46,430 nucleotides of DNA from Planctomycetota bacterium (GCA_016873155.1 VGXX01000005.1:1-46430); one strand, 5' to 3'; counted from the stretch's first letter, positions 22,297 through 35,506 are shown. The notes: generated by a model not told the origin, from the sequence alone. A program made the numbers and translations.

Positions 22297-23139
22297 ATGA
22301 CACAAATAACCGAAGACACCTTTGAACAGGCGCTGCACATCTTTAGAGAAGCACAGGAAATCGACCTTCACGGTGTGACCTTCATAGACCCTTACGGCAT
22401 GGTCGGTTTGCTTGAGATTGGAGAGATTCTTAAATCAAATGGTGTTCGGAAAACCATGTATCTTCCTGAATCGGAAGAAGTCCTCAAATACCTCGAAAGG
22501 ATGGATTTCTTCAGGTTTGCCGGTGGATACTTCAACTTAAAACCTGCCCAACCTCAAATATCGGAAAAATATTTACGAAATCAAAGTTCGGATGTCTTGC
22601 TTGAAATAACACCCATAGAAAAGTCAGATGATATTCATTTCATTGTCGGAAAGGTCAAAGGCCGCGCCCACGCAATTCTTGCAAAACATCTCCATTATGA
22701 CGAAAGGGCAATCAATGGGTTTATTGTGGCGCTTTCTGAGGTATGTCAGAACATCATCGAGCACAGCGAGACGAAAGGATTTGTAGGCATCCAGAAATAT
22801 CATTTTCACACAATGAATAAAAATGTGGTAAAAATTGCCGTTATGGATATTGGGATAGGTTTTCGGACGTCTCTTTCTGAGAGATTTTCATTAAAAAATG
22901 ACCTTGAGGCCATTGAAAAGGCGCTGCTTCATGGTGCATCGAGGTATGCTGAGAAAGGGCGGGGGCATGGTTTGGCAGCCGTACGGCGTTTTGTTAGCCA
23001 GTGGAACGGCAAACTCTCCATCCGCTCAGGAACAGCAAAACTCTCGATAATTCCCCAATGGGCATGGGGAAAAGAGAGAGAACTCAGTCTTGCATACTTT
23101 CCAGGCGCGCAAATTAATATCCTCCTGCCCGAAATATAA
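22297..23139 (+). CDS. STAS-HATPase fusion, partner-switching regulator
   Basis: A 280-aa protein. Residues 1-85 look like a STAS-type fold ('DLHGVTFIDPYGMVGLLEIG', 'LPESEEVLKYLERMDFF'). Residues about 125-280 are a GHKL ATPase: N-box 'ALSEVCQNIIEHSE', G1 box 'MDIGIGF', and G2-like 'GRGHGLAAV'. No phosphoacceptor domain is present, so it resembles the anti-sigma kinases of SpoIIAB/RsbW type fused to their STAS antagonist. Its last 45 codons recur, diverged, at 23930-24064, beyond a toxin-antitoxin module. A DUF4325-like STAS protein lies at 33723 and may be its separated partner. Confidence 0.85.
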   Translation: MTQITEDTFEQALHIFREAQEIDLHGVTFIDPYGMVGLLEIGEILKSNGVRKTMYLPESEEVLKYLERMDFFRFAGGYFNLKPAQPQISEKYLRNQSSDVLLEITPIEKSDDIHFIVGKVKGRAHAILAKHLHYDERAINGFIVALSEVCQNIIEHSETKGFVGIQKYHFHTMNKNVVKIAVMDIGIGFRTSLSERFSLKNDLEAIEKALLHGASRYAEKGRGHGLAAVRRFVSQWNGKLSIRSGTAKLSIIPQWAWGKERELSLAYFPGAQINILLPEI

Positions 23140-23256: not shown

Positions 23257-23532
23257 ATGTCAGTCACAAAACTTGGAATAAGTATTCCAGAGGAGATTCT
23301 TGAGGAAGTAGACAAGATTTCGCAAGGATTAAAAAAGAACAGAAGTGAAGTTATTAGAGAAGCGATTACAAAGATGATCAATGATTACAAGAAGCAACAG
23401 GTTGTTGAAAAGGCGGGAAAAATTTATAGAGAGATTGCAGAAGACGACAAACGTCTTGCGGAAGATTTTTTGAGTATCTGCGAAAAGCCCGGTGCAAAAT
23501 ATAAAGCCGGTATTAAGACAAAGAGAAAATGA
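23257..23532 (+). CDS. Ribbon-helix-helix antitoxin of a MazEF-like module
   Basis: A 91-aa protein whose N-terminal 45 residues form a ribbon-helix-helix DNA-binding domain ('TKLGISIPEEILEEVDKIS' strand and helix, 'NRSEVIREAITKMI' second helix). The charged C-terminal half would wrap the toxin. It overlaps the toxin gene by 4 bp (ATGA). GAGGGG lies ahead of the ATG. It should bind the GGTATTC repeats upstream and neutralise the downstream toxin; both roles are inferred from the family. Confidence 0.85.
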   Translation: MSVTKLGISIPEEILEEVDKISQGLKKNRSEVIREAITKMINDYKKQQVVEKAGKIYREIAEDDKRLAEDFLSICEKPGAKYKAGIKTKRK

Positions 23533-23888
23533 AGCAACCCAAAAGGGGTGAGATATATTTTTTCGATTTCAGTTCTTCAAAAGGAAGGGAGATAAAAGGT
23601 TCGCATCCTGCCTTAATCATTCAGAATGACGTCGGCAATAAAGGAAGTAGTCTCACAATCGTTGCCGCTATAACAAGTAATCTTAAAGTGGCCGAACTCC
23701 CGATTGGTGTAATAATAACACCGGAAGAAAGCGGCCTTCCTCAGAAGTCTGTTATCCACCTCGGACAAGTATATACCATTGATAAAGAAAGGCTTGAAAA
23801 TCTCATCGGAATGCTTTCAAAGGATAAAATGTTGGAAATAGATAAGGCTATAGAGATAAGCCTGGGGTTGAGAGAGTTTTGGGAGTAA
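23529..23888 (+). CDS. MazF/PemK-family mRNA interferase toxin
   Basis: A 119-aa protein with the PemK/MazF fold. The family's opening 'KRGEIYFFDFSSSKGREIKG' is followed by the 'SHPALIIQND' strand, in which the conserved Arg-Pro of most MazFs is replaced by His-Pro. 'LTIVAAITSN', 'SGLPQKSVIHLGQVYTIDKE' and a C-terminal helical 'AIEISLGL' complete it. MazF toxins cut mRNA at short sequence motifs. The gene sits between the complete ATPase gene and a duplicate of the ATPase 3' end, so the whole module looks inserted. Confidence 0.88.
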   Translation: MKQPKRGEIYFFDFSSSKGREIKGSHPALIIQNDVGNKGSSLTIVAAITSNLKVAELPIGVIITPEESGLPQKSVIHLGQVYTIDKERLENLIGMLSKDKMLEIDKAIEISLGLREFWE

Positions 23889-24064: not shown

Positions 24065-24154
24065 TTTTTTGTTTGACAAAGATTTTTTTATAAGTACAAT
24101 TCAATTGAATCTATTGAATACATTTATTGTTTCCAACAATAAATATTCCAAAAT

Positions 24155-24172
24155 CCCCCTTAAGAAAGGGGG
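24155..24172. repeat. CCCCCTT hairpin
   Basis: CCCCCTT and AAGGGGG pair around AAGA. The same motif appears in longer form at 35445-35466 and degenerately near 3392. It may act as a terminator or simply be a dispersed repeat. Confidence 0.6.
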
Positions 24173-24229: not shown

Positions 24230-24463
24230 ATGGAAGAAGATATTGAAAAAGAAGCATTAAGAAAGCATTTTAACGAAACAGTAGAGAAATTTGAAAAATA
24301 CTATAACGACCCCGATCAGCACCACAAGATATTCACAGAACTTGGGTTTACCTATGTTGATGACGGCTGTGACGGCTTTTGCCCTCAATGTAAGCAAAAA
24401 CAGACTTGTGATCTCTATGATGAATTTAAGGATGAGTGGGAAGCCCTTTATCGTAACAATTGA
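24230..24463 (+). CDS. Small Cys-rich acidic protein
   Basis: No family is recognised. The 77-aa protein is acidic and helical at the N-terminus (EKEALRKHFNETVEKFEKYY). Near residues 46-60 it has a cysteine cluster, 'CDGFCPQCKQKQTC', spaced C-x3-C-x2-C-x6-C, which suggests a bound zinc or iron-sulfur cluster. GGGAGG lies 15-10 nt before the ATG. It stands between the ATPase fragment and the HQAVKYL fragment, so its original context is unclear. Confidence 0.65.
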   Translation: MEEDIEKEALRKHFNETVEKFEKYYNDPDQHHKIFTELGFTYVDDGCDGFCPQCKQKQTCDLYDEFKDEWEALYRNN

Positions 24464-24481
24464 AGAATATTTTCTTCCACC

Positions 24482-24550
24482 CATCAGGCGGTAAAATATC
24501 TCCCAGAGATTTCAATAGATAAAAGCAACATAAGGAATGTATTTAAATAG
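24482..24550 (+). pseudogene. Remnant C-terminus 'HQAVKYL...' (copy 1)
   Basis: Reading CAT at 24482 gives HQAVKYLPEISIDKSN followed by IRNVFK and a stop. The same 23 codons, with 20 base differences in 69, occur at 27090-27158 (HQAIKYLLELQTDKSD, then VRDILK). No start or longer open frame precedes it. The two tails bracket the SacI-like R-M pair. I do not recognise the parent gene. Confidence 0.7.
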
Positions 24551-24812: not shown

Positions 24813-25913
24813 ATGAACGCGAAAAGGAAAAAATCCTCAAAAACTAGTAAGTTTGAAATCAAAGAATCCACGACACAATATTGCACCACCAATAGAGTTA
24901 GTTCGTTTGAAAGTTTCTTGGACAATATAATACACGGAGATAACTTACTTACATTGCAATTAATTCCAGATAACAAAATAAATTTAATAATTACCTCTCC
25001 TCCTTATTTTAAGCAAAGGGACTATGGCAGTGGCATAGGGAATGAAAAAAGCGTTGAAGAGTATATAGAAAACCTTAAAAAAGTCTTTGCAGAATGCGTT
25101 CGTATTTTGAGAGACGATGGAAGTATCGTATTTAATCTGGGAGACAAATATTTAGAAGGAAATCTCCAGCTTATACCATATAGATTTACCTTGGAAGTAA
25201 TGAAAACATTTCCAGTGAAACTTGTAAATAATGTAACTTGGGTAAAACTCAATCCCACACCACGTCAATACCAAAAGCGACTTGTAAGCAGCACAGAACC
25301 GTTTTTCCATTTTGTAAAGAATGATAATTATTATTACAGCTTAGCTAATTATTTAAATAACGGAACAAAAAATAAAAAGCCTAATGGAAACAACATTGGG
25401 AAAAAATACTATGAGTTAATAGAATACTCGAATCTTACATTAGAACAAAAAAAGTTGGCATTCAACGAATTAGATAATGTAATTCAAGAGGTAAAAGAAG
25501 GAAAGATAGAAAGTTTTAGAATGAAAATTAAAGGCATACATTCAGAACCATTTGGCGGGCAGGACGGCGGCAGGAAATATCAACTTTTGAAAAAAGGGTT
25601 TACCATTATAAAAATCAAAGGAGATCCAATCAAAAGGGACGTAATAGAGTGCGCAGTGGAGACAATAAAAGGCAGCAAACATCCTGCAATTTATCCAGTC
25701 TACATCATAAAAGAACTTATTAAACTTCTGTCAAAACCAGACGATATTGTTTTAGATCCTTTTATTGGAAGTGGAACTACCGCGGTAGCAGCTAAAGAAC
25801 TTGGCAGAAAATATATAGGGATAGAGATAAACGAAGAATATTGCAAAAAAGCCAGGGAAAGAATTAAAAATACTCATAAGGAAAATCCATTGGGTCTAAT
25901 TTATGAAAAATGA
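24813..25913 (+). CDS. Type II DNA methyltransferase (beta order, SPPY)
   Basis: A 366-aa N4-cytosine/N6-adenine-type methyltransferase. The catalytic motif IV is 'ITSPPYFKQ' (near residue 68). The SAM-binding motif I is 'DPFIGSGTTAVAAKELGRKY' (near residue 310), followed by 'IGIEINEEY'. The IV-before-I order is that of the beta group, and SPPY is commoner in N4-cytosine enzymes. The central 150 residues probably hold the target-recognition domain. It overlaps the downstream endonuclease gene by 11 bp, so it should protect the host from that enzyme. Confidence 0.93.
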   Translation: MNAKRKKSSKTSKFEIKESTTQYCTTNRVSSFESFLDNIIHGDNLLTLQLIPDNKINLIITSPPYFKQRDYGSGIGNEKSVEEYIENLKKVFAECVRILRDDGSIVFNLGDKYLEGNLQLIPYRFTLEVMKTFPVKLVNNVTWVKLNPTPRQYQKRLVSSTEPFFHFVKNDNYYYSLANYLNNGTKNKKPNGNNIGKKYYELIEYSNLTLEQKKLAFNELDNVIQEVKEGKIESFRMKIKGIHSEPFGGQDGGRKYQLLKKGFTIIKIKGDPIKRDVIECAVETIKGSKHPAIYPVYIIKELIKLLSKPDDIVLDPFIGSGTTAVAAKELGRKYIGIEINEEYCKKARERIKNTHKENPLGLIYEK

Positions 25914-27036
25914 ATATAAAAACAAATCACATGTAAAAATATTACAAGAAATATACAAGAAAGCGTTATGTATTGTAAATGAAGGAAGCCTTCTGCCATT
26001 AACCAGCAATTTGGACAAAAAGGAAGAAACTCACCTAAAAGCTATTTTTGATAATTTTGAAAGAGGGCGTGGTGTATTGACGGTTTTAATAACAAGCCTT
26101 GTCCACAAATTACACAATCCAGAGCAGGACATCAGACTTCATCAAGAAAACATGAAGGGGGGCTACTCAGGCAGAGGAATTGATACCAAATATATTACTC
26201 CCTTTATGAAGGAAGTGAGATTCCCATCTATGGCTGAAAGCGGGTGGCTTACACGGTCGTTAGAACAAAACAGACCTTATGACTTTAATTATCCAGGCAA
26301 AATAACTCCAAAAGAATTAAAATCTGCGTTTCTTTTCTTACTCGATCAGATTCAAACTCATAATAAAAATCCGGAAATATATTTATTGATTCTGTTCGCA
26401 AAGTTAATAGAACATCGTGAACAGGAAAATATTGATTTAGCTAAACCAACAAATCTTCCAATTTCCACAATCGTTAACTATCTGAGAATGCACTTTGAAT
26501 CAAGCTATTCCTCACGTGGAGCATCAAGACTACCAACCTTAGCAATTTATGCCATATATCAATGCCTCTTAAAAGAGTTAAAGAGATTCGAGGGCAAAAT
26601 CTTAATCCCTCTGGAAGAACATACATCCGCAGACAAAAGCTCCGGCAGGGTTGGTGATATAGAAGTTAGAGACAAGGAAAACAGGGTGTTTGAGGCGGTA
26701 GAGATAAAGCACGGCATTACGATAAACGCGCAATTAATAAGAGACGCCTATGAAAAGTTTAAATCGCACCCCATTCAAAGATATTATTTATTAACAACAG
26801 CAGAAGAAAACGTATCCGGTATTGAACTTGTTTCTAAAGAAATTGCAAGAATACTGAAAATTCACGGCTGCCAGGTAATCGTCAATGGTATATATCCTTC
26901 CTTAAAGTATTACTTAAGGATGTTAAATAACCCATATGAATTCATTGAAAACTACGTGGAGAATTTAAAAATTGATACCGCAATAAAATATGAACACAGG
27001 CTGAAATGGAATGAAATTGCCAGTAGCGAACAGTAG
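25903..27036 (+). CDS. SacI-like type II restriction endonuclease
   Basis: A 377-aa protein that I recognise tentatively as the SacI (RE_SacI) family. Around residues 250-275 it has 'VGDIEVRDKENRVFEAVEIK', which reads as a PD-(D/E)xK nuclease core with GD at the metal site and ExK at the end. The N-terminal half is helical and includes 'GRGIDTKYITPFMKE'. SacI itself cuts GAGCTC; specificity here cannot be read from sequence. It overlaps the methyltransferase gene, completing an R-M pair. No controller gene is present. Confidence 0.72.
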   Translation: MKNEYKNKSHVKILQEIYKKALCIVNEGSLLPLTSNLDKKEETHLKAIFDNFERGRGVLTVLITSLVHKLHNPEQDIRLHQENMKGGYSGRGIDTKYITPFMKEVRFPSMAESGWLTRSLEQNRPYDFNYPGKITPKELKSAFLFLLDQIQTHNKNPEIYLLILFAKLIEHREQENIDLAKPTNLPISTIVNYLRMHFESSYSSRGASRLPTLAIYAIYQCLLKELKRFEGKILIPLEEHTSADKSSGRVGDIEVRDKENRVFEAVEIKHGITINAQLIRDAYEKFKSHPIQRYYLLTTAEENVSGIELVSKEIARILKIHGCQVIVNGIYPSLKYYLRMLNNPYEFIENYVENLKIDTAIKYEHRLKWNEIASSEQ

Positions 27037-27089
27037 TATAAGTGGGAAATCTATAGTAAGAACATTTCATTTATAAATTTCCCGCTGTC

Positions 27090-27158
27090 CATCAGGCAAT
27101 AAAATATCTCTTAGAGCTTCAGACGGATAAGAGTGATGTGAGGGATATATTGAAATAA
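27090..27158 (+). pseudogene. Remnant C-terminus 'HQAIKYL...' (copy 2)
   Basis: This is a second copy of the tail found at 24482-24550, with 12 of 22 residues the same and no indels. Here the open frame reaches back a little (HFIYKFPAV precedes HQAIKYL) until a stop near 27060. It follows the SacI-like gene, so the R-M pair is bracketed by direct, diverged fragments of one unknown gene family. Confidence 0.7.
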
Positions 27159-27204
27159 AGTTAGGATTTTAAACCGACATAATAATATTTGTGGGATTAT
27201 AAAT

Positions 27205-28044
27205 ATGGAACTATTTTCCCAAAGAAAAGGCTTAAAAGCTGTTAAAAAACTTATACAAATTGATAATATAGATGATGATTTACTTAATGGTTTATGGAAT
27301 GCATTAACTATCTACTATTGGGGTAAGACGTCTGAATATGCTTTTAGTAAAGATTTGTATATTTTGTTTAAACGTTTGTGGCATTCATATTTCAAAAAAC
27401 CGATAGATACCCTCTCCAGTAATTGGGAGATTAGTTATCAAGAAATAAGGGAATATTATTTTAATTGTTCATGGTTTGAAGTATATGATTTTATAGAATT
27501 TATTGCCAATAATTACCCAAATCAGTCAACAAACAAGATTTTTATTAATTTTTCCAATAATGTTTTAGAACGAGAATTATCAGCGTATCGTTTCATAGAC
27601 GGAAAAATTACACAGATCACAGCAAAAGAAGAAATTGACGAAATAGAAGAAGCTTTAGAAGCAACAAAATCTTTGAAAACCGTTTTTCTTCATTTAAAAA
27701 GTGCTCTAAATTTATTTGCAGATCGAAAATTCCCTGATTATAGAAATTCAATTAAAGAATCCATAAGTGCTCTTGAGGCAATTTGCAATTTAATAGCAAA
27801 AGATACTAAGGCAACGTTGGGACAGGCTTTAAAGGAAATCGAGAAGAAAATGACATTACACCCTGCTCTGAGAAAAGCATTTGATAGCCTTTATGGCTAT
27901 ACGAGCAATGCAGAAGGAATACGCCATGCATTATTGGATGAACCAACCTTGGATTTTGAGGATGCAAAATTTATGTTGGTTTCTTGTTCTGGATTTATAA
28001 ACTATCTTTTAGCAAAGTCATTAAAAGCTGGAATCAAGCTATGA
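27205..28044 (+). CDS. AbiJ-NTD4 / HEPN abortive-infection protein
   Basis: A 279-aa protein matching AbiJ-type abortive-infection proteins. The N-terminal domain (MELFSQRKGLKAVKKLIQID, then 'LLNGLWNALTIYYWG') is the AbiJ-NTD4 type. The C-terminal part from about residue 165 is a helical HEPN-like domain, ending 'AEGIRHALLDEPTLDFEDAK' and 'MLVSCSGFINYLLA'. Known AbiJ proteins block phage growth by stopping the infected cell; the biochemical target is not clear. It is encoded on the same strand between two R-M pairs, which supports a defence role. Confidence 0.85.
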   Translation: MELFSQRKGLKAVKKLIQIDNIDDDLLNGLWNALTIYYWGKTSEYAFSKDLYILFKRLWHSYFKKPIDTLSSNWEISYQEIREYYFNCSWFEVYDFIEFIANNYPNQSTNKIFINFSNNVLERELSAYRFIDGKITQITAKEEIDEIEEALEATKSLKTVFLHLKSALNLFADRKFPDYRNSIKESISALEAICNLIAKDTKATLGQALKEIEKKMTLHPALRKAFDSLYGYTSNAEGIRHALLDEPTLDFEDAKFMLVSCSGFINYLLAKSLKAGIKL

Positions 28045-28073
28045 TTCGATTCCCAGAATATTAGGAATATTTT

Positions 28074-29231
28074 ATGGTTAATACCGTAAAGGACGTCAGG
28101 GAAATTGTAAATAAATGGATAGATATCCACCTGCATGAATACAGCAACAAGATTTCGCAGGGACTTCCTGAAATAGACGACAGATATAATCTCTGGCGTG
28201 TATCACTCGTGGTAAAAAATGGAGCATCATCCTCGATAGGAGAGGTCAAGGTTTCCATGAACGGTGAGATAGCTGAACATACAGAGGTTGGTCTACTCGT
28301 AAAGCGTTTAAAGAAATTCATTGATCAAAAGGAAATTGTCAGAGAAAAAATAGCGGGTTTATTCTATCCAGCTCCTATTCCTAATAAAGTAATTCTTGGA
28401 GACGCAGCAATTGTACTTGATGAATTTCCACCCGATACTGCACAGCTTATTATTACATCCCCCCCTTATTTTAATGCAAAGCCTCAATATTCAGAATATA
28501 TAGATTACCAGGAATACCTGGATTTTTTAAGAAAGGTATTTGTCAGATGTCACACCATTCTTTCGGAAGGGAGATTTTTTATTATCAATGTCTCTCCCGT
28601 GCTTATACGAAGGACATCACGAAGCAACTCGAGCAAAAGGATTCCTATCCCTTTTGATATACATCGAATTATGGATACAACGGGTTTTGAGTTTATTGAC
28701 GATATTATATGGGTAAAACCAGAAGGAGCGGGATGGAATACGGGCAGAGGCCGAAGATTCGCAGCAGACAGGCAACCATTACAATATAAACCGGTCCCTG
28801 TTACAGAATACGTTTTAGTTTACAGGAAAAAAACTAATAAACTAATCGACTGGAATATAAGGAAGCACCATGATAAACGATTAGTTGAAGAATCAAAGAT
28901 AAAAGGGCAATATGATATAACGAACGTCTGGCACATACCTCCAGGGCATCACAAGGATCACCCCGCCGTATTTCCCAACGAATTAATTAGGCGTTTAATT
29001 AAATATTACTCGTTTATCGATGACCTTGTATTGGATCCATTTGCAGGTTCTGGAACAATTGGAAGAGTATCTATCGAAATGGAGAGGCGTTTTCTTCTCA
29101 TAGAAAACAATCCACGATTTTTTAAAGCAATGAAAAAAGAACTAATTTCCCTGTCTTCCAACCTTATACGTAATGTAAGAGTGGATTTTGATATAAATGA
29201 GGGTTTTAAAGGAGATTCAAATGGTGATTGA
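28074..29231 (+). CDS. Type II DNA methyltransferase (CfrBI-like pair)
   Basis: A 385-aa methyltransferase. After an N-terminal extension of about 100 residues, motif IV is 'IITSPPYFNAKPQ' (near residue 128). The target-recognition region contains a Gly/Arg-rich 'GAGWNTGRGRRFAADRQP'. Motif I is 'DPFAGSGTIGRVSIEMERRF', again the beta order. SPPY favours N4-cytosine methylation. It overlaps the next gene by 11 bp and should be that endonuclease's modification partner. It differs clearly from the first methyltransferase, so it is not a recent duplicate. Confidence 0.92.
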   Translation: MVNTVKDVREIVNKWIDIHLHEYSNKISQGLPEIDDRYNLWRVSLVVKNGASSSIGEVKVSMNGEIAEHTEVGLLVKRLKKFIDQKEIVREKIAGLFYPAPIPNKVILGDAAIVLDEFPPDTAQLIITSPPYFNAKPQYSEYIDYQEYLDFLRKVFVRCHTILSEGRFFIINVSPVLIRRTSRSNSSKRIPIPFDIHRIMDTTGFEFIDDIIWVKPEGAGWNTGRGRRFAADRQPLQYKPVPVTEYVLVYRKKTNKLIDWNIRKHHDKRLVEESKIKGQYDITNVWHIPPGHHKDHPAVFPNELIRRLIKYYSFIDDLVLDPFAGSGTIGRVSIEMERRFLLIENNPRFFKAMKKELISLSSNLIRNVRVDFDINEGFKGDSNGD

Positions 29232-30198
29232 TTTTGAAATTAATAAATATAGACAATGGCTACAGGAGAATATTACACTTTCAGACCCATTTTCCCCTGA
29301 TTCTCTTAGAACAATTATCCTCTATCTTATTTTAGGTAAGAATTACAGACTTCTTACTGAGAGAAATACAAAAGAAAAGCTTTTTGCAACATACGTGTGG
29401 CTTTCAGAAATTTATGATAGGGCAAAGAAGGAATATGGAGAAAACTGGAAAGAAAAAATGCTTAAAGAGCTTATGATCGTTGAGGGGTCTTCCAAAGAAG
29501 AAAAAGATTTGATGTTTTGGCTTCTGGGTCTGACCAAAAAGACCGCTGATAACCTTGATATTTCAAGGGAAGATTTTCCAGATTTCTTGAATCAAACAAT
29601 AATCTATTGCAAAGAACTTTTTTCCAGCCTTGATTATCAAGAAAAAGAAGATTATGTATGGCTTTTGATGATGGCAGGCTCAGCCACGTTGAATATAAGA
29701 GGTTCGCAAAAAGCAAAAATAGGCAAAGGCCTAGAGCGAACATTTTTGAGAGTAGCATTAACACTGCTTGGTCTCGAGCTTGGTGAAAATTTTTGGGTAA
29801 ATATTGGGAGAGATTTAGAAGTTGAGAGAGAAGCCGATGCAGAAGTTCAAACAAAACGGGGCAGGATTAGGATTGATATTGGGCTTATAGCAAGAGGAAA
29901 CCAGGAAGTTATAGAAGATAAGATTAATCGGGTAGGCCGACACGGTGTAGTAATTTTTGATAGATTAGGGGCTAGATCGACTGTTTATGAAACGGCCAGA
30001 AGAAACATGGTTAAATTAATCCAGATTCGACATAACCAGCCTCTTTTAGAGCTAAAACGTCATCTTACTCCATTAGTAAATGTAGAGTTAAAACAAATAC
30101 CCCAGGAAGAAAATAAACTAAAGAATCTTCTAAAAAAATTACCCGATAAATTTTTTACAATTGAAAAGAAATTAGGCGAAAGCGAAGAAGATGAATGA
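29221..30198 (+). CDS. CfrBI-like type II restriction endonuclease
   Basis: A 325-aa protein that I tentatively assign to the CfrBI endonuclease family. The likely nuclease region is about residues 195-230: 'EREADAEVQTKRGRIRIDIG' followed by 'QEVIEDKINRVGRHGVVIFD', with acidic residues and a Lys that could form the metal site. ATG 29221 is preferred because AAAGGAG lies 6-12 nt before it, inside the methyltransferase gene; a frame open from 29197 lacks such a site. CfrBI cuts CCWWGG, but specificity here is unknown. Confidence 0.68.
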   Translation: MVIDFEINKYRQWLQENITLSDPFSPDSLRTIILYLILGKNYRLLTERNTKEKLFATYVWLSEIYDRAKKEYGENWKEKMLKELMIVEGSSKEEKDLMFWLLGLTKKTADNLDISREDFPDFLNQTIIYCKELFSSLDYQEKEDYVWLLMMAGSATLNIRGSQKAKIGKGLERTFLRVALTLLGLELGENFWVNIGRDLEVEREADAEVQTKRGRIRIDIGLIARGNQEVIEDKINRVGRHGVVIFDRLGARSTVYETARRNMVKLIQIRHNQPLLELKRHLTPLVNVELKQIPQEENKLKNLLKKLPDKFFTIEKKLGESEEDE

Positions 30199-30239
30199 AA
30201 AAAGCAATAAATTTATTATACTTAAAATCTAGGTTTCAC

Positions 30240-30310
30240 AACCTATCAATTACCTCAATATTTTACAGCAAAATATCTGGTTATTGCAGTAAGACAGAGG
30301 CATAGAAAGC
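30240..30310 (+). pseudogene. Frameshifted fragment of the 97-aa gene
   Basis: The sequence matches 33168-33240 inside the 97-aa gene. It translates as TYQLPQYFTAKYLVIAV, then an extra A shifts the frame and DRG follows. Neither end of the gene is present. It lies directly behind the CfrBI-like gene, while the intact homologue lies behind the GIY-YIG gene, so the third R-M pair is bracketed by homologous sequence. Confidence 0.75.
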
Positions 30311-30378
30311 AAGGGCAATTAGAAACCAAAAACATTTTGAAAAATATTAAGCATACAATTACTGTGATAAACTAAAAA

Positions 30379-31773
30379 ATGCAACTAAAATTACCCCTCA
30401 TTGATAACAATACTACGGATGTCAGGAAGAAGAATGTCCTTTCTTCCCCCAAATTTGGCGGTTCTTGCGATATTGACTCAAAACCCTACCTGAAAGAGTT
30501 AGGGATTGAGATTGTTGAGAGCCGGCAGCCGATACAGTTTACATCGAACTTTGGTGAACACGTGCACCGATGGGCGCCTTATATTCAGGGTTTTTCCGCT
30601 GCATTTGTACAGTCGATACTTGACCAATACAGAGATGATTACAAATCACCGGTCATTCTTGACCCCTTTGCGGGCTGTGGAACTGTCCTTACCCAGAGCA
30701 AGTTAAACGGATATAAATCTGTTGGTACCGAATTAAATCCACTTCTTCAATTTATTGCAGATATAAAGGTTAATTCATGGGACGTTGCCCCTGAATTGCT
30801 CAAAGAAACGTTTTCATCTATCCCCAAAAACATAAGAACCCCTGCCCCTGAGTTCCTCAAATCAGAAAATCAATTCAATAAAGGTGTGTTAAAAAATTTG
30901 GAACTCATAAAAGGGGGAATTGATTCTATTCCCGCAAAAACAAAGGAACAAACTAAGGTCAAAAACCTTATCCTCCTTGCATTTTCTTCGATTTTGATTG
31001 ATTGCAGCAATCTTAAAAGAACTCCATGTCTTGGATATTGGAAAAACAAAAAAGTTCCCGACAATGCTCCCTGGATACTCATGGAGCAGAAAATTAAGGA
31101 TATTTGCAAAGACCTGGAAGTTCTTCAAGAAAAATTAAAAAATAATATACAGACAGAAAGCAAGGTTTTGCTTGCCAATGCAATGGAATATAAACACAAA
31201 CACTTATTTGATCTCATTATTACCTCACCGCCATATATGAATGGGCTTGACTATGTTATGAACTACAAGATTGAAATGGCATGGCTCGGCTTTACAAAAC
31301 AAACAAAGGACGCAAAAAAAGTGAAGGATAGTCTTGTTGTTTGCGACAATGTTTCGAAAGGTTTAATCAGGACATTTGTCCAATCAAACGCTAAATATAC
31401 AAATAATTGGATAGAGGAAATAAAAGTAAATATCGAGGAAAATATAAAAAGAAGAGGTAATTACAGGCGAAGCGACATGCCTTATATCGTACACAAGTAT
31501 TTTGATGATATGTATAAGGTCCTGAGTGTAGTTACAAAATCCCTCAGAGCAAATGGACGTTTCATCCTTGTTGTTGGTGATAGCCTGATTGCCGATGTTT
31601 ATGTGCCTACAGATTTACTTTTAGCCAAAATTGGAACAGAACTAGGACTATCCATTGAGAAGATAGAAAAGGCACGAAACCGCCGATCAGGTCAGGTAAG
31701 AAACTATAAACTTAGAGAAACAATAATTACTCTAAAAAAAGAATCAAGAGGAATACAAAACAATGGAAGATAA
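30379..31773 (+). CDS. DNA methyltransferase of I-before-IV order
   Basis: A 464-aa methyltransferase. Motif I 'DPFAGCGTVLTQSKLNGYKS' (near residue 95) comes before motif IV 'IITSPPYMNGLDYVM' (near residue 280). This order differs from the two other methyltransferases here. About 180 residues lie between them, containing a 'CSNLKRTPCLGYW' segment that may belong to target recognition. The C-terminal 'RFILVVGDSLIADVYVPTDL' completes the fold. It overlaps the GIY-YIG gene by 11 bp, so the two form a third R-M pair. The methylated base (N4C or N6A) cannot be decided. Confidence 0.9.
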   Translation: MQLKLPLIDNNTTDVRKKNVLSSPKFGGSCDIDSKPYLKELGIEIVESRQPIQFTSNFGEHVHRWAPYIQGFSAAFVQSILDQYRDDYKSPVILDPFAGCGTVLTQSKLNGYKSVGTELNPLLQFIADIKVNSWDVAPELLKETFSSIPKNIRTPAPEFLKSENQFNKGVLKNLELIKGGIDSIPAKTKEQTKVKNLILLAFSSILIDCSNLKRTPCLGYWKNKKVPDNAPWILMEQKIKDICKDLEVLQEKLKNNIQTESKVLLANAMEYKHKHLFDLIITSPPYMNGLDYVMNYKIEMAWLGFTKQTKDAKKVKDSLVVCDNVSKGLIRTFVQSNAKYTNNWIEEIKVNIEENIKRRGNYRRSDMPYIVHKYFDDMYKVLSVVTKSLRANGRFILVVGDSLIADVYVPTDLLLAKIGTELGLSIEKIEKARNRRSGQVRNYKLRETIITLKKESRGIQNNGR

Positions 31774-32674
31774 GTTTGGGTATCATCAAGATATTAAAAA
31801 TGGTGATGGAATAATAAGAGCAAGAACAATAGGAGGTCATTTACGGTCATGGGAAATTCCAAGAACGATGAATGCACTGGAAGTAATAAAGAAAGAATGG
31901 GGAAATCTCGAATATCCGGGTATCTACATTCTCTTTGATTCTTCGGGCAAAAAGGTATATATCGGTGAAGCAAAGGATATATACAGCAGACTTAAAACAC
32001 ATTTGACTTCTCCAGAAGATAAAATAAAAAACTGGGACAGGGCGATTATTATTAATGATGGTAGGTCAGCTACACAGTCTGATTTTAACGATACGGTAAT
32101 AAGGAAATCTTTAGAATTACATTTAATTTCATTATTTAAAGCTAACCGATATACGGTGGTTGCTCAAGGAGAACCACAAAAACATAACCCACAGCAAAAA
32201 TCCTTATTCCAAGCACTGAAAGAAGAATTCAATTTCTTTTTAATGAAGAAAAATCTTATTACAAAGCTCATTGACAAACCGGGACAAGAGGAAATTCTGA
32301 GAGACGAATTGAAGAAAATTTTAGAGAAAAAAGGGTATAAGATTGAGAGTTGGAAGGCTGATGAGGCGGTTCTAAACAGTGAAAAGGCATATATTAGACC
32401 TGGGAGTCCTAAGCCTAAAAATAATCCAAAACATTGGCAAATTACTTTTCGAGATGTTTTCAAAGATTCTTTGCAAAAAGGAGAAGGTTGTCTTTTAGTC
32501 CCAAGAGACGGTATCTTGCTTATTCCTCTTAAGGAAGTTCAAAAGGTAGTAACTGATTCCTCAAAATATAAGCAAAATACCATAGATGTCTATGTTAATT
32601 TCAAAGAGGAAGCCATCGAACTAACTTATACAACTAATATGGTGGATGTAACACAGTTCCGATTAATTAAGTAA
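31763..32674 (+). CDS. GIY-YIG nuclease, likely restriction endonuclease
   Basis: A 303-aa protein with a GIY-YIG nuclease domain at about residues 48-130. 'YPGIYILF' supplies the GIY, 'VYIGEAKDIYSRLKTHL' supplies the YIG plus the conserved Arg, and 'RKSLELHLISLF' supplies the metal-binding Glu. The remaining 150 residues are of unknown fold and probably bind the target ('WQITFRDVFKDSLQKGEGCL'). The overlap with the methyltransferase gene makes a type II restriction role likely, as in Eco29kI or Hpy188I; a homing or repair role is less likely. Confidence 0.82.
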   Translation: MEDKFGYHQDIKNGDGIIRARTIGGHLRSWEIPRTMNALEVIKKEWGNLEYPGIYILFDSSGKKVYIGEAKDIYSRLKTHLTSPEDKIKNWDRAIIINDGRSATQSDFNDTVIRKSLELHLISLFKANRYTVVAQGEPQKHNPQQKSLFQALKEEFNFFLMKKNLITKLIDKPGQEEILRDELKKILEKKGYKIESWKADEAVLNSEKAYIRPGSPKPKNNPKHWQITFRDVFKDSLQKGEGCLLVPRDGILLIPLKEVQKVVTDSSKYKQNTIDVYVNFKEEAIELTYTTNMVDVTQFRLIK

Positions 32675-32699
32675 GGTGGTTTAAAAAGGAAGATTGTCC

Positions 32700-32879
32700 G
32701 TGTTTTTCTTATACGATACGAAAGGACACAAAGAAAAGTTTAAAACAATGGATGAATTAAGGGATTATGTCGAAATTAGACACGCCGAAGAAGGTGGATT
32801 CGATTGGATTTCTGAGATTAAGGATGGCAAAGGGTGTCAATATGGATGTAGCTGGCACTTAGAAATTGTGCGTATTTAA
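32700..32879 (+). CDS. Small hypothetical protein
   Basis: The product has about 59 aa (FFLYDTKGHKEKFKTMDELR; later 'HAEEGGFDWISEIKDGKGC'). I prefer GTG 32700 because AAGGA (32686-32690) lies 9 nt before it; TTG 32694 would be too close. It has two Cys and two Trp and no membrane segment. It resembles the small acidic domains that accompany accessory genes, but I do not recognise the family. It lies 25 bp after the GIY-YIG gene and may be in the same transcript. Confidence 0.6.
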   Translation: MFFLYDTKGHKEKFKTMDELRDYVEIRHAEEGGFDWISEIKDGKGCQYGCSWHLEIVRI

Positions 32880-32948
32880 TTAACGTTCTGTGCATCTAAG
32901 TATGTTTTATTAACAGTCTCGAAATAGTATTTACAGACTCTGTGTCAT

Positions 32949-33018
32949 GCCCGAGGACTTTAATCGGGCACCCAGAGATGCAAATACTGCTGGATTCCCG
33001 CTAAAAACATGCGGGAAT
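32949..33018. repeat. Two intergenic hairpins
   Basis: GCCCGA/TCGGGC (32949-32969) and ATTCCCGC/GCGGGAAT (32994-33018) follow each other. The second is the common 'ggattcccgc...gcgggaatgac' type dispersed repeat. The rest of the gap between the small gene and the 97-aa gene shows nothing further. Confidence 0.65.
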
Positions 33019-33104
33019 GACAACTATAATGTACAGACTATTATGAGACCCTTAATAAGTACAAATGAATTGGAGGAAGTAATATTAATAGGTGAATAAA
33101 AAGC

Positions 33105-33398
33105 ATGAAAAAGAAAAGAACAAAAAAGGTTACAAACAAAATTAGTACGAGTAATCCAGAATGGATTACCTATCAATTGCCTCAGCCATGTGAAGCAAGA
33201 TATCTGGTTGTCGTAGTAGACAGAGGCATGGCATGCGAGGTCAACTATTTTGATTCACTGGATGATGCCAAAAGGACTTTTGAAGAAATTGCCCATGATT
33301 ACGGCTATGAACCAGAAGAAATAAATGAGTCTGATAAATACGATGTTTCGATATGGGAATGGGCTGAGGACAGATATGAAAAAGTTTTGTGTGTCTAA
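33105..33398 (+). CDS. 97-aa hypothetical protein with a duplicated fragment nearby
   Basis: The family is unknown. The protein has a basic N-terminus (MKKKRTKKVTNK), a middle segment 'YQLPQPCEARYLVVVVDRGM', and an acidic Asp/Glu-rich second half ('DSLDDAKRTFEEIAHDYGYE', 'SIWEWAEDRYEK'). This looks like a small alpha-beta domain. A frameshifted copy of its middle part lies at 30240-30310. Since both flank the third R-M pair, homologous sequence may have guided the insertion of that pair. Confidence 0.65.
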   Translation: MKKKRTKKVTNKISTSNPEWITYQLPQPCEARYLVVVVDRGMACEVNYFDSLDDAKRTFEEIAHDYGYEPEEINESDKYDVSIWEWAEDRYEKVLCV

Positions 33399-33429
33399 AA
33401 TAAGTGGAATATTTCACCCCCCCCTTAAT

Positions 33430-33478
33430 CCCTCCCGTCAAGGGAGGGAAAGTCCCCTCGCCCCTTGTGGGAGAGGGG
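33430..33478. repeat. Pair of G/C-rich dispersed hairpins
   Basis: CCCTCCC/GGGAGGG (33430-33448) and CCCCTC/GAGGGG (33454-33478) are adjacent. They belong to the common 'ccctcccgtcaagggaggg' and 'cccctcgccccttgtgggagagggg' repeat types found between genes. Confidence 0.65.
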
Positions 33479-33504
33479 TATTTTCGTGTCAAAGAAATGT
33501 AAAA

Positions 33505-33583
33505 ATGGGAATTGACGAAAGAAATATAGAAATAATCGATGACATTATGGCAAGAATATTCAGGGAAAAGACCCCCCTATGGC
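33505..33583 (+). pseudogene. Gene start cut off by a palindromic repeat
   Basis: The reading frame MGIDERNIEIIDDIMARIFR then EKTP looks like a real N-terminus (an amphipathic helix of the 'DD.MA.I...KTP' kind). It runs directly into the 25-bp palindrome at 33584, after which the frame is repeat-derived and soon stops. I interpret it as the stub of a lost gene. The family is not recognised with confidence. Confidence 0.4.
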
Positions 33584-33608
33584 GGGTTCAGGTTTGCAAC
33601 CTGAATCC
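33584..33608. repeat. 25-bp palindrome (11-bp arms, 3-nt loop)
   Basis: GGGTTCAGGTT-TGC-AACCTGAATCC, one mismatch. It has the same architecture as the palindromes at 181, 248 and 33671, and abuts the broken ORF. Confidence 0.75.
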
Positions 33609-33722: not shown

Positions 33723-34283
33723 ATGAATATTTATAATCTTTACAAACTCCTTAAGGAAGAACTAAAGAACGGCTCGAATGACCTTGTTACAAGGGTTTCG
33801 GGGCAGGTAATCAGGGAACGGATTGAAAGGGATATTGCCCAGGAGGAAGACGGCGCAGTCGTTGCCCTTGATTTTTCTAAGATAGGGATCATTGATTATT
33901 CATGCGCTGATGAGATCGTGGCTAAGCTCATCTCTCGTCTGCTCAGTGGAGAATACGGCGAAAAATATATCACTCTGACCGGTCTCAATGAAAATCAAAA
34001 GGAAAATATAGAAGTCGCCCTTGAGAGGAAAGACCTTGCCGTTATGGCGGAAATGCAGGATGGGAAAAAAATACTTCTGGGAAGCCTGAATAACTACCTA
34101 AAGGAGACGTTGAATCTGATTCTGAAGAAAGGGAGAATATCAGCCAAAGACCTTTCTGAAATCATGAAACTTGAGGCCAATACCAGCGGGACGAGACTTT
34201 TGAATCTTCATAAAAAACGGCTTGTAAAGAGGGTGGATGCAATAACAAATGGCGGGAAAGTGTGGGTATATGAGAAAATATAA
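33723..34283 (+). CDS. DUF4325-like STAS protein with winged helix
   Basis: A 186-aa protein. Residues about 40-110 form a STAS-like domain ('VVALDFSKIGIIDYSCADEI', 'YITLTGLNENQKENIEVALE') of the DUF4325 kind. Residues about 125-186 look like a winged helix ('RISAKDLSEIMKLEANTSGT', 'LHKKRLVKRV'). Such proteins often lie beside stand-alone GHKL ATPases, so I suggest it belonged with the STAS-HATPase gene at 22297, now some 10.6 kb away. No clear Shine-Dalgarno precedes ATG 33723; the region just before it is repeat sequence. Confidence 0.75.
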   Translation: MNIYNLYKLLKEELKNGSNDLVTRVSGQVIRERIERDIAQEEDGAVVALDFSKIGIIDYSCADEIVAKLISRLLSGEYGEKYITLTGLNENQKENIEVALERKDLAVMAEMQDGKKILLGSLNNYLKETLNLILKKGRISAKDLSEIMKLEANTSGTRLLNLHKKRLVKRVDAITNGGKVWVYEKI

Positions 34284-35426: not shown

Positions 35427-35444
35427 ATAAATTATTCTGTTTAA

Positions 35445-35506
35445 GTCCCCCTTAAAAAAGGGGGACTCTGGGGGTTGTGTTTTTTCTGGGCTATTTTACA
35501 ACCCCC
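35445..35506. repeat. Two successive G/C-rich hairpins
   Basis: GTCCCCCTT/AAGGGGGAC (35445-35466, 4-nt loop) and GGGGGTTGT/ACAACCCCC (35470-35506) are perfect. A third partial GGGGG run follows at 35519. They belong to the same family as 24155-24172 and may end the mscK-like transcript. Confidence 0.75.

What the first reader, a model, noticed from the sequence alone, without database searches (positions are those of the whole stretch)
30240..33398. Third R-M pair bracketed by a broken and an intact copy of one small gene
A frameshifted fragment (YQLPQYFTAKYLVIAV) lies before the methyltransferase/GIY-YIG pair, and the intact 97-aa homologue (YQLPQPCEARYLVVVV) lies after. Together with the two other cases, three of the modules sit between homologous gene fragments.
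Basis: seen in the sequence. Interest (0 to 1): 0.7.

Follow-up and report, generated by a model that had tools for sequence, protein, structure and literature searches.

The report
Stacked restriction systems with a companion gene
In an anammox bacterium, two copies (one broken, one whole) of a small gene lie either side of a restriction-modification pair because the small gene is a recurring companion of restriction enzymes and two such units were stacked, not because the pair jumped into the gene; the stack sits in a defence-gene hotspot bounded by the same two regulator-like genes in at least three bacterial groups.

Summary
A decayed copy of the 97-aa gene (g97) lies at 30194-30378 and the intact gene at 33105-33398, either side of the methyltransferase/GIY-YIG pair M3-R3. 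The implied mechanism (the pair sits between duplicated halves of one gene) is not supported here. The relic begins at an ATG that overlaps the stop codon of the preceding CfrBI-type endonuclease R2. It looks like the short N-terminal form of g97, whereas the intact gene is the long form. Sisterhood of the two copies is marginally rejected (AU p=0.044). In two same-genus genomes M3 directly follows AbiJ4, with neither M2-R2 nor relic. So M2-R2-g97 most likely entered upstream of a resident M3-R3-sm61-g97. Elsewhere g97 lies just 3' of unrelated restriction genes (EcoO109I, MvaI/BcnI, BglII, M.Eco57I types), including in Nitrospirota and a Deltaproteobacteria-labelled MAG: it is an R-M companion gene. 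The stack lies between a HATPase gene and a DUF4325 gene. That pair bounds variable, mostly co-directional R-M/toxin cargo in 28 loci, and is adjacent with no cargo in three Nitrospirota genomes. Real bracketing by neighbour-gene duplications does occur at this locus, most clearly in another genome (L067 against L063).

The parts
22297..23139 (+). HATPase_c (GHKL) gene, left bookend of the hotspot
   Evidence: PF02518 E 6e-8; 73-93% identical in relatives and in a Deltaproteobacteria-labelled MAG
23257..23888 (+). CopG-MazF toxin-antitoxin pair
   Evidence: PF01402 E 3e-8, PF02452 E 1e-27; absent from the same-genus site G004:C65
23924..24066 (+). second copy of the HATPase 3' end (143 nt, 85%)
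   Evidence: D1
24230..24463 (+). g77, 77-aa conserved small gene of the hotspot
   Evidence: homologues in 12 loci
24481..24549 (+). tailA, first copy of the small repeat around M1-R1
   Evidence: D2
24813..27036 (+). M1-R1: N6/N4 methyltransferase plus presumed endonuclease
   Evidence: PF01555 E 2e-51; R1 has no family match; orthologous pair in G013
27089..27157 (+). tailB, second copy (72%); single copy between g77 and AbiJ4 in G004 and G005
   Evidence: D2
27205..28044 (+). AbiJ_NTD4 protein (PADLOC candidate PDC-S32)
   Evidence: PF18863 E 6e-37; PDC-S32 E 9e-114
28074..30198 (+). M2-R2: methyltransferase and CfrBI-family endonuclease, inserted between AbiJ4 and M3
   Evidence: PF01555 E 4e-45, PF09516 E 9e-44; absent from G004 and G005
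30194..30378 (+). g97 relic: starts at ATG overlapping the R2 stop, short N-terminal form, frameshift and 16-nt deletion, ends at the M3 start codon
30379..31773 (+). M3 DNA methyltransferase (DPFAGCG and TSPPY motifs present)
   Evidence: 85-91% orthologues in 6 relatives
31763..32674 (+). R3 GIY-YIG endonuclease
   Evidence: PF01541 E 1.4e-8; weak match to UvrC N-domain
32694..32879 (+). sm61, 61-aa gene that follows R3 in relatives too
   Evidence: homologues in G001 and G004, fragments in G030 and G020
33105..33398 (+). g97 intact, long N-terminal form, resident copy at the DUF4325 end
33505..33594 (+). truncated remnant of g74, another small gene usual next to DUF4325
   Evidence: 30 of 74 residues, 70%
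33723..34283 (+). DUF4325 STAS-like protein with possible winged-helix C-terminus, right bookend
   Evidence: PF14213 E 1e-5, HTH_24 E 0.006

Best explanation
g97 is a small companion gene that lies directly downstream of many unrelated Type II restriction genes. In this genome two R-M units that each end in a g97 gene have been stacked: AbiJ4 | M2-R2-g97 (now a pseudogene) | M3-R3-sm61-g97 (intact) | DUF4325. Shown: M3-R3 was in the genus without M2-R2 or the relic; the M2-R2-relic block fills exactly the space between the AbiJ4 stop and the M3 start; the relic starts on the R2 stop codon; g97 follows restriction genes elsewhere; the stack lies in a hotspot between a HATPase gene and DUF4325. 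Inferred: M2-R2-g97 entered as one operon; its g97 decayed because a second copy was resident or because it is dispensable; g97 acts on restriction, for example by tuning expression or activity of the endonuclease (a beta-beta-alpha-beta-beta protein is predicted at modest confidence, function untested).
For: Relic start ATGA overlap with the R2 stop at 30194-30198, and N-terminal length of the short form (53 nt to the conserved core, against 51-57 in short and 69 in long forms); the best N-terminal matches are short-form genes (z 4.5 and 4.3, against 2.9 or less for long forms). Sisterhood of relic and intact copy: AU p 0.044; the best tree puts the relic with G030. G004 and G005 have AbiJ4 followed after about 90-100 bp by M3, with no relic and no M2-R2; window homology to them stops at 28046 and restarts at 30379. 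M3 orthologues occur in six relatives and a Deltaproteobacteria-labelled MAG, R2 at this similarity only here and in G023:C100. In G032, M3 nt 1-252 is joined to sequence 12 nt upstream of g97, so M3...g97 order predates this genus. g97 lies directly 3' of EcoO109I (12 nt), MvaI/BcnI, BglII (L126; also L066, about 800 nt), M.Eco57I-type (54 nt), N4/N6 methylase (30 nt) and PLD-type (253 nt) genes.
Against: No genome with an intact M2-R2-g97 was found. The relic is only about 180 nt, so its placement on the tree is weak (best node 57/71) and a looser grouping of the relic with the long forms is not rejected (p 0.30). In G001, G005 and G016 the M3-R3 pair has no g97 downstream, so the M3-R3/g97 link is not obligatory. 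Two g97 neighbours (414 aa in G030, 172 aa in G013) match no known family.
Confidence: 0.75

Rival explanations
1. M3-R3 inserted into g97 and duplicated part of it (insertion with long target duplication, as described for R-M genes in Helicobacter), leaving a broken copy on the left and a whole one on the right.
For: R-M pair lies between direct repeats; a similar geometry with an empty-site partner exists in another genome, L067 against L063, at the DUF4325 start.
Against: Relatives with M3-R3 lack the left copy, and the site without M2-R2 has no g97 at that place at all; copies are of different forms and sisterhood is marginally rejected; the left copy is trimmed on both sides and starts on the R2 stop codon.
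Confidence: 0.1
2. Tandem duplication of g97 followed by separation: the gene was duplicated in place and M3-R3 or M2-R2 later recombined between the copies.
For: Two copies near each other in one genome.
Against: M3 lies between the copies in an order that predates the genus; the copies are probably not sisters.
Confidence: 0.06
3. All brackets in the window, this one included, are scars of homologous recombination at shared small genes with DNA of other species, rather than of whole-operon gain or target duplication. (This rival overlaps with the best explanation: it differs on how M2-R2-g97 was joined, not on which genes belong together.)
For: In all three brackets the two copies are no closer to each other than to genes of other species: HATPase tails 85% against 85-89%, tails 72% against 75-78%, g97; M1-R1 and long-form g97 are shared with other genera.
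Against: Old target duplications that have since diverged would look the same; L067 copies (90%) are closer to each other than to L063 (84-87%), as expected of a target duplication; M2-R2-relic is joined at gene ends (AbiJ4 stop, M3 start), not inside a shared gene.
Confidence: 0.3
4. The similarity is a chance match.
For: The protein-level match of the fragment is weak (E 0.2).
Against: DNA score 68 against a shuffle maximum of 35 and 75% identity over 129 nt to G030 g97, E 2e-18.
Confidence: 0.01

Closest known systems
Insertion of R-M genes with long target duplication (Nobusato et al. 2000, Gene 259:99, as cited in PMC3031569)
   Same: R-M or toxin-antitoxin modules bracketed by direct repeats of a neighbouring gene, with one copy left whole; seen at the HATPase 3' end and DUF4325 5' end in several genomes
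   Different: For the pair in question the empty site carries no copy of the repeated gene and the two copies are probably not sisters; HATPase-tail and DUF4325-head cases fit better, and only L067/L063 has copies closer to each other than to the empty site
Immigration control regions / R-M hotspots (E. coli, Xylella; Listeria lmo0301-lmo0305, PMC10059834)
   Same: Fixed flanking genes and interchangeable R-M content
   Different: Here the two flanking genes are themselves a conserved pair shared by Planctomycetota, Nitrospirota and a Deltaproteobacteria-labelled MAG, and pair plus cargo sits at different chromosomal places even within one genus (Lon side in G000/G001, RibF side in G004/G005)
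Small accessory genes of R-M systems (C-proteins, from general knowledge; RptR, PMC12255303)
   Same: A small gene tightly linked to R-M genes
   Different: RptR is a small repressor tied to Type I systems; g97 matches no Pfam, NCBIfam or PADLOC family, is predicted beta-beta-alpha-beta-beta without PDB match at E 0.001, and follows many unrelated Type II enzymes

Membership tests
Insertion with long target duplication | module lies between direct repeats | tested here: met
Insertion with long target duplication | related genome without the module has exactly one copy of the repeated segment at the junction | tested here: not met
   G004 and G005 have no g97 between AbiJ4 and M3; met for L067 against L063 at DUF4325, a different module
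Insertion with long target duplication | the two copies derive from one another | tested here: inconclusive
   different N-terminal forms; AU p 0.044 against sisterhood, marginal, on a short relic
Type II R-M system (M3-R3) | DNA methyltransferase with SAM and catalytic motifs next to an endonuclease domain | tested here: met
   PF01555, PF01541, PADLOC MTase_II
Type II R-M system (M3-R3) | sequence-specific restriction and matching methylation | not testable with these tools
   needs methylome or enzyme assay
Defence hotspot / immigration control region | same flanking genes, different R-M content between genomes | tested here: met
   28 loci, gap 110 bp to 10.9 kb, cargo rich in methyltransferases and restriction enzymes
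Defence hotspot / immigration control region | empty version of the site exists | tested here: met
   HATPase and DUF4325 110-168 bp apart in L133, L135, L141
IS-borne composite element | transposase or integrase genes at the ends | tested here: not met
   no transposase or integrase among the window genes scanned in the stack; one rve match among 105 pooled cargo ORFs of all loci
Plasmid or phage module | bookend or g97 found on plasmids or phages | tested here: not met
   no g97 or DUF4325 match in plasmids, no DUF4325 in phages, no g97 in viral contigs

The most novel reading that the evidence does not exclude
The HATPase-DUF4325 pair is a dedicated docking and control unit for restriction and toxin-antitoxin modules. 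An ancestral two-gene operon (GHKL ATPase plus STAS/winged-helix protein, resembling a partner-switching regulator) accepts modules between its genes, expresses them co-directionally, moves with its cargo between chromosomal sites and across phyla, and g97 is an accessory factor used by whichever endonuclease is docked.
Probability: 0.22. Interest if true: 0.75.

Novelty: new variant of a known kind. Interest (0 to 1): 0.5.

Why it matters
It replaces a tempting reading (restriction genes jumping into a gene) with a testable one: a small gene family that follows many unrelated restriction enzymes, and a defence hotspot whose two boundary genes are a conserved regulator-like pair across phyla. 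The hotspot supplies natural empty and filled sites, so the old question of how R-M genes enter chromosomes without their own recombinase can be studied by comparison. g97 may be an overlooked part of R-M systems.

Tried and rejected
Homology between g97 and sm61 (look-alike small genes after R genes): rejected, hhalign probability 0.3%. Fold assignment for g97: AF2 mean pLDDT 66, no PDB match at E 0.001, so no function from fold. Plasmid or phage origin: no matches. Target duplication as cause of this bracket: argued against by sister genomes. A tree of g97 DNA was mostly unresolved. Terminal repeats at the outer ends of the HATPase...DUF4325 unit: none obvious in alignments of 180-200 bp outside the two genes (output partly cut, so not excluded). 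Literature on DUF4325: two papers with one mention each; no paper found that links it to R-M hotspots.

Full report
WHAT WAS CHECKED. ORF 33105-33398 encodes 97 aa. The DNA at 30241-30322 aligns with 33168-33247 at 81% (score 68, best of 500 shuffles 35), and a looser alignment reaches from 30206 to 30378. Relative to the intact gene the fragment has a +1 frameshift and a 16-nt gap. The own genome has no other g97-like place. Between the copies lie M3 (N6/N4 methyltransferase) and R3 (GIY-YIG), plus a 61-aa gene, sm61. The other two brackets also exist as DNA: a 143-nt copy of the HATPase 3' end around CopG-MazF (a toxin-antitoxin pair), and a 69-nt repeat around M1-R1.

THE SURROUNDINGS. Reading outwards, the stack lies between a HATPase gene (22297-23139) and a DUF4325 gene (33723-34283). 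Same-family genomes show the same two genes around different contents. Record titles of matching contigs (Kuenenia, Brocadia, Scalindua) identify the group as anammox Brocadiales. Homology between genomes starts at about the HATPase start and stops at about the DUF4325 stop, and the outer neighbours differ. In G000 and G001 the unit follows Lon. In G003, G004 and most other relatives whose loci were read, Lon is followed by, or close to, ArgC. In G011, G018 and G022 the unit lies between TatC and RibF, while in G014 TatC and RibF face each other with nothing between. In Nitrospirota, DUF4325 of this kind was found in 24 of 198 genomes. In three of the 20 regions fetched around it the two genes are 110-168 bp apart with no cargo, and others hold M-R pairs. 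A Deltaproteobacteria-labelled MAG, L063, has HATPase-176aa-M3-R3-MTase-g97-DUF4325. Over 28 loci with both genes (one duplicate fetch not counted) the gap runs from 110 bp to 10.9 kb, and about 111 of 115 mechanical ORFs of 100 aa or more read in the same direction as the bookends. Of 105 pooled cargo ORFs, 16 match N6_N4_Mtase and 6 Eco57I, with GIY-YIG, BsuBI/PstI, TdeIII, EcoO109I, BglII, PemK and PIN also present.

G97 IS AN R-M COMPANION. A scan of 84,980 species genomes gave nine g97 loci, in anammox bacteria, Nitrospirota and Deltaproteobacteria-labelled MAGs. The gene directly upstream is an EcoO109I endonuclease in L064 (12 nt), MvaI/BcnI in L065, an M.Eco57I-type protein in L063 (54 nt), BglII in L126 (and in L066 about 800 nt away), an N6/N4 methylase in L124 (30 nt), a PLD nuclease in G020 (253 nt), and a truncated M3 in G032. 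In L065 and L066 neither bookend is within the fetched 20 kb, so the link to R-M genes does not depend on the hotspot. Two neighbours (G030 414 aa, G013 172 aa) match no family, and G025 is cut by the contig end.

WHY THE BRACKET IS NOT A TARGET DUPLICATION HERE. (1) In G005 and G004:C65, of the same genus, AbiJ4 is followed by M3 after about 90-100 bp, with no M2-R2 and no g97; alignment to the window stops at the AbiJ4 stop (28046) and restarts at the M3 start codon (30379). (2) The relic begins at the ATG inside the ATGA that ends R2, and its distance to the conserved core fits the short N-terminal form (53 nt, against 51-57 in short and 69 in long forms); the N-terminal alignment is best with the short forms G030 and G013 (z 4.5, 4.3) and weaker with the long forms (2.9 or less). 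The intact gene is a long form, like G020 and G032. (3) Holding relic and intact copy together costs 14 log units, AU p 0.044; the tree itself is poorly resolved, so this is marginal. (4) In G032, M3 nt 1-252 is joined to sequence 12 nt before g97, which shows that M3-...-g97 order existed before this genus. The simplest history is therefore a resident M3-R3-sm61-g97 and a later gain of M2-R2-g97 between AbiJ4 and M3, followed by decay of the incoming g97. The donor was not found; R2 at this similarity occurs only here and in G023:C100, a 5.2-kb contig 100% identical to the window in a bin of another genus. That is either contamination of that bin or very recent transfer.

THE OTHER BRACKETS. 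G004:C65 lacks all three gains: it reads HATPase-g77-tail-AbiJ4-M3 fragment-sm61. The HATPase-tail copies in the window are 85% identical to each other and 83-89% to G001 and G005, and the two tails around M1-R1 are 72% to each other but 75-76% (tailA) and 88% (tailB) to G001 and G005. So neither bracket looks like a recent duplication inside this lineage; old target duplications or recombination with relatives' DNA both fit. Similar HATPase-tail repeats bracket toxin-antitoxin pairs in G030 (three copies), G026, G005 and G013, and a DUF4325-head repeat brackets a nucleotidyltransferase in G001. The cleanest case is L067: an M-R(MjaI) pair lies between a copy of about the first 120 nt of DUF4325 and the whole gene, the copies are 90% alike over 61 nt, and the related L063 has one copy. 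That is the pattern described as insertion with long target duplication (PMC3031569, citing Nobusato et al. 2000).

LOSS. In G004, G030 and G032 the M3-R3 pair has been removed by separate deletions that leave the first 138-252 nt of M3.

HOW IT PROBABLY WORKS. Shown: co-directional cargo between two conserved genes, R-M units trailed by a g97, gain and loss between close relatives. Inferred: modules dock in the gap of a HATPase-DUF4325 operon, where they can be read from the upstream promoter; g97 helps or tunes the endonuclease; a second copy is dispensable and decays. The predicted g97 fold (beta-beta-alpha-beta-beta, mean pLDDT 66) has no PDB match at E 0.001, so its action is open.

LIMITS. 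Most genomes are MAGs with many contigs; the Deltaproteobacteria labels are those of the records; ORFs were called mechanically; the R1 protein has no family match and is called an endonuclease only by position.

Noticed in passing
22297-23139 and 33723-34283: HATPase and DUF4325 genes bound variable R-M/toxin cargo in 28 loci of several phyla and are adjacent without cargo in three Nitrospirota genomes (L133, L135, L141).
   Followed up: yes
L067:12679-15373 against L063:10291-10884: M-R(MjaI) pair between a copy of the first ~120 nt of DUF4325 and the full gene; single copy in the related genome; g97 in L067 is broken up by two inserts.
   Followed up: partly
about 25300-30504 (G023:C100): A 5.2-kb contig in a bin of another genus is 100% identical to the window: bin contamination or very recent transfer.
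   Followed up: no
L050:5491-6091 (G006): HATPase codons 3-43 are joined directly to DUF4325 codon 5 at a contig end: bookend-to-bookend deletion or assembly artefact.
   Followed up: no
L033:6023-8635 (G030): Three copies of the HATPase 3' end, separating a 407-aa DUF11 protein gene and CopG-MazF.
   Followed up: partly
30379-32681: Independent deletions in G004, G030 and G032 each leave a 5' stub of M3, with 2-3 bp overlaps at the joints in G004 and G030.
   Followed up: partly
33505-33594: Truncated remnant of a 74-aa small gene (g74) usually intact next to DUF4325.
   Followed up: partly
32985-33025, 33420-33485, 24151-24172, 35443-35464: Short palindromic or repeat-like intergenic elements that look like interspersed repeats of this genome.
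   Followed up: no
27205-28044: AbiJ_NTD4 protein matching PADLOC candidate defence PDC-S32 at E 9e-114; conserved beside M3 in two same-genus genomes (broken by frameshifts in G005).
   Followed up: partly
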